Shown piece by piece: positions 40,980 to 42,859 of a stretch of DNA of 42,859 nt. The stretch's first letter is position 1, and each line of letters opens with the position of its first letter. This stretch comes from an uncultured Lachnospiraceae bacterium (GTDB lineage: Bacteria; Bacillota; Clostridia; Lachnospirales; Lachnospiraceae), in contig CANQUH010000012.1 of assembly GCA_947626965.1 (NCBI GenBank), positions 1-42,859 of the forward strand, in the 5' to 3' direction. Below the pieces are notes generated by a model, which was not told where the DNA came from, ran no database searches, and saw nothing but the letters and a program-made list of their open reading frames with translations. The position numbers and the translations under genes are program-made.

Positions 40980-41020
40980 CTGTTTTTAAAAAAAGTTCTA
41001 AAAAAAGTACATATTGGTGG

Positions 41021-41049
41021 TTGTGGGAATAAACAAGTTGTGCTATAAT
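41021..41049 (+). promoter_or_regulatory. Promoter of the His-rich metal cassette
   Basis: TTGTGG (41021-41026) and a perfect TATAAT (41044-41049) with a 17-base spacer. Confidence 0.75.
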
Positions 41050-41058
41050 GGCACCAAA

Positions 41059-41085
41059 TGTGAAAGTGGATTTTACAGTGTGAAA
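41059..41085 (+). promoter_or_regulatory. Direct repeat, possible operator
   Basis: TGTGAAA occurs at 41059-41065 and again at 41079-41085, 20 bases apart, about two helical turns, just after the likely transcript start. A regulator bound here could block the cassette promoter. Which protein would bind is unknown. Confidence 0.35.
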
Positions 41086-41122
41086 TTCTTAACAAACTTT
41101 TATTCATGAAAGGACGACGATT

Positions 41123-41563
41123 ATGCATTTGGTTCACGATGAAAACGGCAATCCATGTCCGCATTCCCATGAGCATACCCATACACATCAGCATACGTAT
41201 GAGCACTCTCATCCCCACAGCCATGAACATGGTCACGAGGATGAGCATGACCATACTCACGAGCAGGACGGCTGCGCTCAGGCTTCCTGCGACAGCGGAT
41301 GTGCAGGATGCGGGGCACATGAACACGGCCACAGCCACGCGCATGCTCCTGAGGCGGAGGCGTCAGGACAGGACAAGATGGCAGCCCTGCTTGATTACAT
41401 GTGGAAGCACAATGAACATCATGCGGCGGAGCTTGACCAGGTGGCGGATAAGCTGAGAGCGGCCGGAAAAGCCGAGGCGGCAGAGCAGATCAAGAAAGCG
41501 GTGGATGAATTCCAGAAGGGAAATCTCTATCTCAGCCTTGCTTTGTCCATGGTGAAAAACTGA
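41123..41563 (+). CDS. Histidine-rich metal-binding protein
   Basis: 146 residues in two parts. Residues 1-76 hold 22 histidines, mostly as alternating HxH, and five cysteines (12, 51, 56, 60, 63) in a CDSGCAGC-type cluster. Residues about 84-146 form a helical, His-poor domain (LLDYMWKHNEHHAAELDQ onward), which may be a partner-binding unit. No signal peptide is seen, so it should be cytosolic. Such composition fits binding or storage of nickel, cobalt or zinc; nickel is favoured because cooT and cooC follow. AAAGGA lies nine bases before the ATG. I do not know a characterised homologue with both parts. Confidence 0.8.
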   Translation: MHLVHDENGNPCPHSHEHTHTHQHTYEHSHPHSHEHGHEDEHDHTHEQDGCAQASCDSGCAGCGAHEHGHSHAHAPEAEASGQDKMAALLDYMWKHNEHHAAELDQVADKLRAAGKAEAAEQIKKAVDEFQKGNLYLSLALSMVKN

Positions 41564-41661
41564 AATAAATCATAATATATTTTTTGAGGAAACATTTGCG
41601 GTCCGTTCTTCGCGGCTTTGAAAATCAGCGGAAACGGGATCAGCCAGGGAGGTGCAGGTTT

Positions 41662-41844
41662 ATGTGTCTGGCAACAGCTTACAGGACTTCGGAGCCTGAC
41701 AGCGTGATTCTTGAGTATGTCAGCAAGATTGAGGTTCAAGACGGAAAGATTATCCTGACGGATGTGCTCGGGGATCAGAAGACGATCGAAGGTACGCTTG
41801 CGATGGCGGACCTTACCGGCGGAGTAGTCAGGATTAACTGCTGA
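41662..41844 (+). CDS. cooT: CooT-like nickel-binding protein
   Basis: A 60-residue protein beginning Met-Cys-Leu-Ala. CooT of Rhodospirillum rubrum is of similar size, starts MCMA, and binds one nickel per dimer through Cys2; it helps mature carbon monoxide dehydrogenase. The small all-beta pattern (SKIEVQDGKIILTDVLGDQ) also fits. The ATG at 41662 is nine bases from GGGAGG (41647-41652); a longer in-frame start at 41584 lacks a ribosome site. It lies 98 bases after the His-rich gene with no terminator between them, so co-transcription is likely. Confidence 0.78.
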   Translation: MCLATAYRTSEPDSVILEYVSKIEVQDGKIILTDVLGDQKTIEGTLAMADLTGGVVRINC

Positions 41845-41942
41845 CCGGGAATGCACAGAGATCCGGAGAGAGGATGTCTGCCGAAGTGAGGAAGATCCGG
41901 ATTCCGGTGCAGGATCCGCGGGCGGGTCCTGAATGATTTGCA

Positions 41943-41979
41943 TATAACGGGAGGGCTGCCTGATAGCCTTTCTGTTATA
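41943..41979 (+). other. Long hairpin after cooT
   Basis: TATAACGGGAGGGCT (41943-41957) pairs with AGCCTTTCTGTTATA (41965-41979) over 15 positions with three G-U pairs. G-U pairs on one side suggest an RNA role. No T run follows, so this may be a processing or stability element in the cooT-cooC transcript. The stretch 41980-42080 holds no gene. Confidence 0.6.
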
Positions 41980-42080
41980 GAAAGACGGCGGATGGCCGCA
42001 GCCGCAGGCAGGGGAGCTGCCGACGGTGCCAGCTGTAAATGTCTGCTGTCATAGATTTATGTAACCAGTACAGTCGGGAC

Positions 42081-42161
42081 CCCCGCTGCCAACAGCGGGG
42101 CATCAGACTTGTAACGCTGCTTTGGCAGCGGGGTATTTGACCCTCGCGGCATTTGCCGGAC
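42081..42161 (+). repeat. Repeat R2, copy 2
   Basis: A perfect hairpin CCCCGCTG-ccaa-CAGCGGGG (42081-42100), a second one CGCTGC-tttg-GCAGCG (42115-42130) followed by GGG, then TTTGACCCT and CGCGGCATTTGCCGGAC (42145-42161). The last 17 bases and the CAGCGGGG before them match R2 copy 1 in the HPr-like leader. Confidence 0.7.
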
Positions 42162-42183
42162 GCGCGCAGGCGCGTGATGGCTT

Positions 42184-42236
42184 ACTGTCCGCGGAAATCA
42201 GCGCCGGACGGAAATTCTGGGCGTCCGGCAGACAGT
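42184..42236 (+). promoter_or_regulatory. Structured cooC leader adjoining the ribosome site
   Basis: ACTGTC (42184-42189) pairs with GACAGT (42231-42236), enclosing the eight-base stem GCCGGACG/CGTCCGGC (42203-42229). The ribosome site AGGAGGG (42238-42244) begins one base after the outer stem. A further ACGCGC/GCGCGT hairpin lies just upstream (42160-42175). The layout suits control of ribosome access, but I recognise no known riboswitch. Confidence 0.5.
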
Positions 42237-42251
42237 CAGGAGGGCCGTTTT

Positions 42252-42859
42252 ATGGCACATATTATTGCAATAGCAGGAAAGGGTGGAGTGGGCAAGACGA
42301 CGCTCGGCGGCATGCTGATCCAGAGCATGTGCGAGATGGGAAAACACCCGATCCTGGCAGTGGATGCCGATGCGAATTCAAATCTGAATGAAGTGCTCGG
42401 CGTCGAGGTTGAGATGACACTCGGAGATGTCCGGGAGGAAATCGCAAGAGATGAGAACAGGGTCGCTTCGGAGAAGAAGATTCCGGCCGGCATGGCGAAG
42501 GCGGATTACGCGGAGATCATGTTTCAGCGCTGCCTGATCGAGGACGATGATTTTGATCTTCTCGTGATGGGCAGGACGCAGGGCAAGGGATGCTACTGCT
42601 ACGTAAACGGTCTGCTTCAGTCGCAGCTTCAGAAGCTCGTACCGAACTATAAGTATATGGTCGTGGACAATGAAGCCGGCATGGAGCATATCAGCCGCGG
42701 GATCCTTCCGAAAGTGGACACGATCATTCTGGTGAGCGACTGTTCGCGCCGCGGAGTCCAGGCGGCAGGAAGAATCGCGGAACTGGTGGACGAGTGCAAT
42801 ATGACACCGAAGACGATGGGGCTGATCGTTAACCGCGCTCCGAACGGGGAGTTGAACGA
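42252..42859 (+). CDS. cooC: CooC/AcsF-type nickel-insertion ATPase (partial, 3' end outside)
   Basis: The first 202 codons of a MinD-type ATPase. The P-loop is GKGGVGKTT (residues 9-17 region), followed by LAVDADANSNLNEVLG and the CxC pair Cys114/Cys116 in GKGCYCYVNG, which binds metal at the dimer interface in CooC. VVDNEAGMEHISRG is a family hallmark. It uses ATP to load nickel into carbon monoxide dehydrogenase or acetyl-CoA synthase. AGGAGG is eight bases before the ATG. The reading frame is open to the window edge. CooC and the paralogous AcsF cannot be told apart from this part. Confidence 0.93.
   Translation, partial: MAHIIAIAGKGGVGKTTLGGMLIQSMCEMGKHPILAVDADANSNLNEVLGVEVEMTLGDVREEIARDENRVASEKKIPAGMAKADYAEIMFQRCLIEDDDFDLLVMGRTQGKGCYCYVNGLLQSQLQKLVPNYKYMVVDNEAGMEHISRGILPKVDTIILVSDCSRRGVQAAGRIAELVDECNMTPKTMGLIVNRAPNGELN

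What the first reader, a model, noticed from the sequence alone, without database searches (positions are those of the whole stretch)
41021..42859. A nickel-delivery cassette with an undescribed His-rich component
A two-part protein with 22 histidines and five cysteines in its first 76 residues, a 60-residue CooT-like protein with Cys2, and CooC lie in a row behind one clear promoter. CooC and CooT are known maturation factors of carbon monoxide dehydrogenase. The His-rich protein with its separate helical end is not, to my knowledge, part of the described set and may be the nickel store or donor that hands metal to CooT or CooC.
Basis: partly seen in the sequence, partly recalled or inferred. 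Interest (0 to 1): 0.72.

Follow-up and report, generated by a model that had tools for sequence, protein, structure and literature searches.

The report
Candidate nickel helper for acetyl-CoA synthase
A gut bacterium carries a small histidine-rich protein whose helical half, in the genomes examined, nearly always sits beside the nickel protein CooT and tracks the enzyme acetyl-CoA synthase, so it is probably a CooJ-like nickel carrier; similar proteins in other acetate-making bacteria are already known.

Summary
Window 41123-41563 encodes 146 aa: a His/Cys-rich tract, then a confidently predicted helical hairpin. CooT (Pfam E 3e-17) and a CooC-like ATPase follow. The window ends where the contig ends, but a close relative (L127, hairpin 97% identical) continues into CODH, and the organism's own genome keeps the 3' end of AcsB on another contig. 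In 79 of 80 named-record loci CooT is the next recognised gene; the 80th contig ends there. New here: the hairpin follows acetyl-CoA synthase rather than CODH. Of 63 family genomes with CODH, 36 of 37 with the hairpin have AcsB, against 0 of 26 without it. Seven of 11 hairpin genomes lacking CODH carry a small ACS-like protein on the same contig. Related hairpins carry HWxxHxxxH, the CooJ motif (recalled); the window has YMxxHxxxH. Best reading: a CooJ-like nickel donor with reversed domain order. Nickel binding is untested.

The parts
40992..41011 (+). conserved A-rich block AAAGTTCTAAAAAAAGTACA upstream of the promoter, function unknown
   Evidence: alignment of 25 upstream regions
41021..41049 (+). 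promoter: weak -35 TTGTGG (41021-41026), 17 bases, -10 TATAAT (41044-41049) extended by TGC (41041-41043)
   Evidence: sequence; TGnTATAAT in 24 of 25 aligned regions; not listed by the consensus scan
41078..41095 (+). Rex-like operator GTGTGAAATTCTTAACAA, downstream of the -10
   Evidence: best Rex-like site in the window, 13 of 14; consensus quoted in PMC8457756 (passage); a PF06971 gene, the Rex DNA-binding domain as recalled, is in the genome
41123..41563 (+). gene of the two-part His-rich protein, 146 aa plus stop
41123..41365 (+). His/Cys-rich N-terminal tract, residues 1-81, low-confidence in the model, with nearly invariant DENGN near the start and C60/C63
41366..41557 (+). helical hairpin, residues 82-113 and 117-145
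   Evidence: AlphaFold2 model
41408..41431 (+). HNEHHAAE: H96, N97, H100 and E103, candidate metal site on the first helix
   Evidence: invariant in the chosen alignments A2 (29 rows) and A4 (54 rows); E103 is not kept in the HW-type relatives
41662..41844 (+). cooT, 60 aa, Cys2 present
   Evidence: PF10133 E 3.4e-17
42081..42200 (.). dispersed repeat in the cooT-cooC gap, not part of the system
   Evidence: parts of it are 79-88% similar to stretches on five other contigs of the genome
42252..42859 (+). cooC-like MinD-type ATPase, cut by the contig end
   Evidence: 78-89% identical to the cooC ahead of CODH in the 13 genus loci where the script called it

Best explanation
The protein is a CooJ-like nickel carrier or buffer with its domains in reverse order. 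The disordered N-terminal His/Cys tract gathers several Ni(II) ions; the C-terminal helical hairpin, probably a dimer, holds a more specific site at H96, H100 and E103 and docks on CooT. Nickel then passes through CooT and a CooC-type ATPase to the CODH/ACS enzyme, most likely to the acetyl-CoA synthase side. The operon appears to be under Rex (NADH/NAD+) control. Shown here: gene, conservation, hairpin prediction, adjacency to cooT, co-occurrence with ACS, operator-like sequence. Inferred: nickel binding, dimer, docking, direction of transfer and target.
For: CooT is the next recognised gene in 79 of 80 loci, the last being cut by the contig end; in a second, wider and partly overlapping set CooT lies within 700 nt downstream of 76 of 81 copies and upstream of 1. 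AcsA is recognised downstream in 72 of 80; the AcsA and AcsB used as references pass their NCBIfam models. With CODH present, the hairpin goes with AcsB: 36 of 37 against 0 of 26 (Fisher 7.6e-17). G264, without a CODH hit, keeps hairpin, CooT, CooC and acs genes together. A second copy away from cooT (L116) directly follows a transporter operon whose permease passes a nickel transporter model (NF045474). Hairpin relatives in Acetoanaerobium and other families carry HWxxHxxxH and match the window domain. Deleting a His-rich gene beside cooT in C. autoethanogenum slowed growth in rich medium and lowered AcsB and CooS1 (PMC10230548).
Against: No metal binding has been measured on this protein; His tracts bind zinc too. 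The C. autoethanogenum protein was not compared by sequence here; in that work batch growth on minimal medium was normal in both mutants, the His-rich mutant made over five times more acetate per cell mass in rich medium, AcsD and AcsE went up, and the nickel-supplement test, run on the cooT mutant alone, showed no effect. The hairpin is a common fold with no informative match. Twenty of 81 copies have neither AcsA nor AcsB in the stretch read, including four of the HW type whose genomes were not searched for ACS (L226-L229). Outside the family it is rare: 5 of 398 phylum genomes with profile A1, 14 of 398 with A5, the window's genome counted in both. Co-occurrence is not corrected for ancestry, and ACS and its own CODH nearly always occur together.
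Confidence: 0.68

Rival explanations
1. One reading: a nickel store dedicated to the C-cluster of CODH, with ACS only a passenger in the same operon.
For: In R. rubrum cooC, cooT and cooJ mutants grow on CO only with added nickel (PMC6006190, passages); that CODH has no ACS (recalled). AcsA follows CooC and precedes AcsB in the loci mapped.
Against: 0 of 26 family genomes with CODH but no AcsB have the hairpin; G264 has hairpin, CooT, CooC and acs genes but no CODH hit; 7 of 11 hairpin genomes without CODH have a small ACS-like protein on the same contig.
Confidence: 0.2
2. A general nickel or zinc sink: the tract protects the cell from excess metal, and its place in the operon reflects the metal load of making CODH/ACS, with no transfer to CooT.
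For: Total His varies from 3 to 51 among relatives, as expected of a buffer; one copy follows a nickel uptake operon; in C. autoethanogenum batch growth defects appear in rich medium only.
Against: The helical domain, not the tract, is what is conserved, down to copies with almost no tract (L222-L229), and those stay next to cooT. That points to a partner rather than a sink. In minimal-medium chemostats the C. autoethanogenum mutant still made less acetate and ethanol.
Confidence: 0.2
3. An assembly or docking factor: the hairpin mainly holds CooT or ACS in place, and its conserved His are structural.
For: Hairpin and CooT remain paired where the His tract is nearly absent and where no CODH is near.
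Against: The shared residues of the first helix are His, Asn and His, and copies of this family with AcsA in the stretch read have 7 to 45 His.
Confidence: 0.15

Closest known systems
CooJ of Rhodospirillum rubrum (cooCTJ)
   Same: small His-rich protein with a separate helical part (the latter recalled), encoded with CooC and CooT beside a nickel CODH
   Different: His tract is C-terminal in CooJ (PMC6006190) and N-terminal here; the CooJ motif H(W/F)X2HX3H (recalled from the abstract of Alfano 2019, not held) reads YMxxHxxxH here; linked to ACS here, while R. rubrum CODH has no ACS (recalled)
Hp of Clostridium autoethanogenum (CAETHG_1604 / LABRINI_07945)
   Same: His-rich protein encoded next to CooT (Nbp) and the CODH/ACS gene cluster; the paper says homologs accompany Wood-Ljungdahl genes in several acetogens (PMC10230548)
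   Different: lies downstream of the C1 cluster there; sequence not compared here, so homology is not shown
His-rich protein of Acetoanaerobium noterae (L207:6641-6988)
   Same: N-terminal His tract, C-terminal hairpin of the same family, in a cluster with AcsB, AcsV and CooT
   Different: carries the full HWxxHxxxH motif; a DUF3842 gene lies between it and CooT
His-tract nickel proteins HypB, UreE, SlyD, Hpn
   Same: His-rich tract used to hold nickel (table in PMC8704837, passage)
   Different: no match to any of their families; none is built on this hairpin as far as I know

Membership tests
CooJ | His-rich tract | tested here: met
   22 His before the hairpin, but at the N-terminus instead of the C-terminus
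CooJ | conserved H(W/F)X2HX3H motif in the helical part (definition recalled, Alfano 2019) | tested here: not met
   window has YMxxHxxxH; homologous hairpins in other families meet it
CooJ | encoded with CooC and CooT beside a nickel CODH | tested here: met
   (CODH seen in relatives, not in the window's own assembly)
CooJ | sequence homology to R. rubrum CooJ | tested here: inconclusive
   no CooJ sequence at hand; profiles A1 and A6 list no CooJ among PDB chains, but the window's CooT likewise found no CooT there, so the search is blunt
CooJ | coiled-coil homodimer with nickel at the interface (recalled) | not testable with these tools
   single-chain model only shows a helical hairpin; fold comparisons uninformative
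CooJ | Ni(II) binding | not testable with these tools
   bench measurement needed
CooT (PF10133), second gene | match over the curated cut-off | tested here: met
   62.9 bits against a cut-off of 27
CooC, third gene | MinD/ParA-type ATPase encoded next to CODH | tested here: met
   PF13614 and PF01656 over cut-off; relatives 78-89% identical lie before AcsA; no CooC-specific model was among the matches

The most novel reading that the evidence does not exclude
The hairpin protein and CooT form the nickel-loading pair of acetyl-CoA synthase-type enzymes as a class, not of CODH. The pair follows ACS with or without CODH, and also a small uncharacterised ACS-like protein (about 230-265 aa, with three Cys aligned to Cys of AcsB) encoded with 2-hydroxyglutaryl-CoA dehydratase-type subunits, their ATP-driven activase and a CooC-like ATPase. 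That small protein would then be an unknown nickel enzyme or subunit in Lachnospiraceae that lack CODH.
Probability: 0.3. Interest if true: 0.75.

Novelty: new variant of a known kind. Interest (0 to 1): 0.55.

Why it matters
How nickel reaches the two-nickel site of acetyl-CoA synthase is poorly understood beyond the ATPase AcsF (recalled). A conserved partner of CooT that tracks ACS rather than CODH names a testable nickel donor for the central enzyme of acetogenesis in gut Lachnospiraceae and perhaps in gas-fermenting acetogens, and gives a sequence handle (a hairpin with HNxxHxxE, no Pfam or NCBIfam match) for a protein that has no family model. The same handle points to a small ACS-like protein in CODH-free genomes.

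Tried and rejected

Not in print, as far as searched: the listings of searches showed no paper on the link of this hairpin to ACS or on the small ACS-like protein; only passages or sections of 12 of the listed papers were read. Supplements could not be read, so the 68 potential CooJ of PMC13056359 may include these very proteins.

Full report
WHAT IS THERE. The window is a whole contig of an unnamed draft genome (413 contigs, 89% complete). Its closest named-record relatives are Lachnospiraceae; its genus seems to include a record titled Parablautia sp. (matching contig length). At 41123-41563 lies a 146-residue protein: a tract with 22 His, 5 Cys in the whole protein, then a helical C-terminal part. 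CooT (41662-41844) matches its Pfam family at E 3.4e-17, and a MinD-type ATPase begins at 42252 and runs off the contig. The protein is found in 43 of 47 genomes of the genus, its own included. Against the closest relative compared, differences are mostly silent in both halves (12 to 5 and 12 to 2); against more distant ones the tract changes faster than the hairpin.

DOWNSTREAM. The contig stops there. In genus relatives the order is der, plsY, gpsA, His-rich gene, cooT, (metF in some), cooC, acsA, a second cooC-like gene, acsB; the AcsA and AcsB taken as references pass NCBIfam models (614 bits against 478; 1062 against 800). Of these 80 loci, 79 have CooT as the next recognised gene downstream, and the 80th contig ends one base after the gene; 72 have AcsA downstream, and the other 8 end within 2.2 kb. 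Only eleven reference genes were looked for, so an unrecognised small gene could lie between. L127, whose hairpin is 97% identical, continues into acsA. In the window's own genome no CODH was found, but the last 67 residues of AcsB are at the start of another contig (93% identical), followed by what look by eye like acsD, acsC and acsE. The CODH/ACS core is therefore most likely lost in an assembly gap.

PROMOTER AND CONTROL. TGCTATAAT at 41041-41049 is an extended -10; TGnTATAAT is kept in 24 of 25 aligned upstream regions, one having TGTTATGAT; some rows look like one organism twice. The -35 TTGTGG is weak and the consensus scan missed it. At 41078-41095 lies GTGTGAAATTCTTAACAA, 13 of 14 positions of a Rex-like site and the best in the window; 46 of 78 upstream regions reach 12 or more, against 1.5% of 1560 shuffles. 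The consensus TTGTTAANNNNTTAACAA is quoted in PMC8457756 (passage). A gene with PF06971, which I recall as the Rex DNA-binding domain, is in the genome. A further conserved block at 40992-41011 is unexplained.

THE HELICAL DOMAIN. AlphaFold2 on 54 aligned sequences gives a hairpin, residues 82-113 and 117-145, with high confidence, and little confidence for the tract. Across 29 chosen diverse copies the invariant residues include H12, N13, H16 and E19 of the domain, which are H96, N97, H100 and E103 of the protein, invariant in 54 aligned proteins too. Two further copies lack them. No Pfam or NCBIfam family covers it. A profile from two relatives of another type, with HWxxHxxxH, matched 14 of 398 phylum genomes, among them the window protein in its own genome at E 3.4e-5; with profile A1 the same sample gave 5 of 398. 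A comparison of profile A1 with A6, which holds nine HW rows and two bridging rows, gives 97.7% probability, E 1.7e-12. In the HW type the two His and the Asn are kept, the Glu is not. The HW type is seen in Acetoanaerobium noterae, in a cluster with AcsB, AcsV, CooT and DUF3842, and in unnamed families where the His tract is almost absent. HWxxHxxxH is the motif that I recall for CooJ. So the hairpin is the constant part and the tract is the variable part.

WHAT IT FOLLOWS. In a sample of 299 genomes, nearly all from different genera of the family, 48 have the hairpin and 63 a long CODH match (60 over the curated cut-off of 478 bits, three below it at 466, 465 and 389); 37 have both (Fisher 9e-21). 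AcsB was then sought in the 74 genomes with either one: it is in 36 of the 37 with both, in 0 of the 26 with CODH alone, and in 2 of the 11 with the hairpin alone (Fisher for the CODH genomes 7.6e-17). In the one miss, G246, the contig ends right behind the second cooC, where acsB would follow. Of the 11 without CODH, one is the window's own genome (AcsB fragment), one (G264) has a full AcsB and by eye a full acs cluster with CooC, CooT and hairpin, seven have the small ACS-like protein described below, and two are weak hits inside long frames (E 2.5e-4 and 9e-4). The genomes are related, so the p-values overstate the independence of the evidence. Nearness to ACS is less strict than nearness to CooT: in the wider set of 81 copies, 61 have AcsA or AcsB in the stretch read and 20 do not. 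Four of the 20 are HW-type copies (L226-L229) whose genomes were not searched for ACS.

SMALL ACS-LIKE PROTEIN. In CODH-free genomes the pair hairpin-CooT lies near a CooC-like ATPase, an activase of the BadF type and HGD-D proteins (family matches in L233 and L235, the activase also in L236; the rest by eye), and a 230-265 residue protein. One of these (L233) matches the ACS beta family PF03598 above its cut-off (29.5 against 24 bits), while its homolog in L235 had no Pfam match at 1e-5. In an alignment of three of them with AcsB, a C-terminal CxxCxxxxxC falls on CxxCxxxxxxxxC of AcsB (that these are A-cluster ligands is recalled, and most of the rest aligns loosely). A search with the L235 protein found it in 23 of 299 genomes; 8 of these have the hairpin, 15 do not. 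Among genomes without CODH, 7 of the 11 with the hairpin have it, against 11 of 225 without (Fisher 1.2e-6). In the 7 it is on the same contig as the hairpin gene, about 14 kb away in one and 6.6 kb in another. So the small protein does not require the hairpin, and the link is a lead. PMC7000372 (passages) reports a Lachnospiraceae acetogen with CO dehydrogenase activity but no canonical CODH/ACS genes; whether it has this protein was not tested.

EXCEPTIONS THAT HELP. In the wider, partly overlapping set of 81 copies, CooT is within 700 nt downstream in 76 (one with another hairpin gene between), upstream in 1, and not recorded in 4: one of these has CooT in an overlapping frame (L235), one is cut by a contig end (L241), and two stand apart (L116, L118). 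L116 starts 19 nt behind an ABC transporter operon whose permease passes the NCBIfam nickel transporter model NF045474 (324 bits against 300); the other three subunits have NikA, NikD and OppF models as best match, all below their cut-offs. In L120 a metal-sensitive repressor (PF02583) with its own His tract precedes the pair. Both point to nickel or cobalt; L118 showed nothing of the kind.

WHAT IS KNOWN. CooJ is a His-rich nickel protein, 16 His in its C-terminal domain, four nickel per monomer at 4.3 uM; cooC, cooT and cooJ mutants of R. rubrum need added nickel (PMC6006190, passages). PMC13056359 (passages and section 6) assigned 68 potential CooJ from context and iterated search, in 12% of clade E and under 5% of clade F operons; its tables could not be opened. 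PMC10230548 (abstract, passages, parts 1-2 of 3 of the results) deleted a His-rich gene and cooT beside the C1 cluster of C. autoethanogenum. For the His-rich gene: growth rate 37% lower on syngas and 21% lower on fructose in rich medium, no change in minimal batch culture, acetate yield over five times higher in rich medium, CO uptake 8% lower and less acetate and ethanol in minimal chemostats, AcsB and CooS1 down 1.5-fold each, AcsD and AcsE up 1.5-fold. A survey of gut CODH genomes reports cooS-cooC-acsB as the conserved order for most such genera, and its main text holds no mention of CooT, CooJ or histidine (PMC11338639, passages).

MECHANISM. Most likely the tract collects nickel, the hairpin carries a specific site and contacts CooT, and CooT with a CooC-type ATPase passes nickel to ACS and perhaps its CODH. 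Gene order and co-occurrence are shown; binding, contact, direction and target are inferred. It works like CooJ; it is not filed as CooJ because the defining motif is incomplete and homology to R. rubrum CooJ could not be tested.

Noticed in passing
L233, L234, L235, L236, L237, L247, L248: Seven CODH-free genomes with the hairpin carry a small ACS-like protein (230-265 aa), in those examined near HGD-D subunits, a BadF-type activase and a CooC-like ATPase; the small protein alone is in 23 of 299 family genomes.
   Followed up: partly
L116:3823-8189: A second copy of the hairpin protein directly follows a Nik-type nickel ABC transporter operon; another gene on the same strand starts 80 nt later.
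   Followed up: partly
L121: An acs cluster (AcsV, B, E, C, D by eye) with CooC, CooT and hairpin but no CODH, next to what looks by eye like a NikM/CbiM-type ECF transporter.
   Followed up: partly
L120:6579-8405: Three His- or Cys-rich genes in a row before CooT; the first is a metal-sensitive repressor (PF02583) with an N-terminal His tract, the other two are hairpin proteins.
   Followed up: no
L035:9648-10340: In many loci of this genus a 230-residue protein between the second cooC and acsB matches only the C-terminal third of CODH (TIGR01702 positions 417-621).
   Followed up: no
window 42081-42200: Dispersed repeat in the cooT-cooC gap; parts are 79-88% similar to stretches on five other contigs of the genome.
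   Followed up: no
window 40992-41011: Block AAAGTTCTAAAAAAAGTACA strongly conserved upstream of the promoter across the genus.
   Followed up: no
L009:3395-4165 and L010: A second CooC-like gene in the window's genome, with no CODH hit in that genome, present on two contigs at nearly the same offset, which suggests mixed strains in the assembly.
   Followed up: no
L207: The Acetoanaerobium noterae record of 2.6 Mb labelled a plasmid carries acs genes and looks like a chromosome.
   Followed up: no
L126, L207, L222-L230: DUF3842 is encoded with CooT and the HW-type hairpin protein in these loci of other families (PF12953 match for L207, the rest by similarity to it).
   Followed up: no
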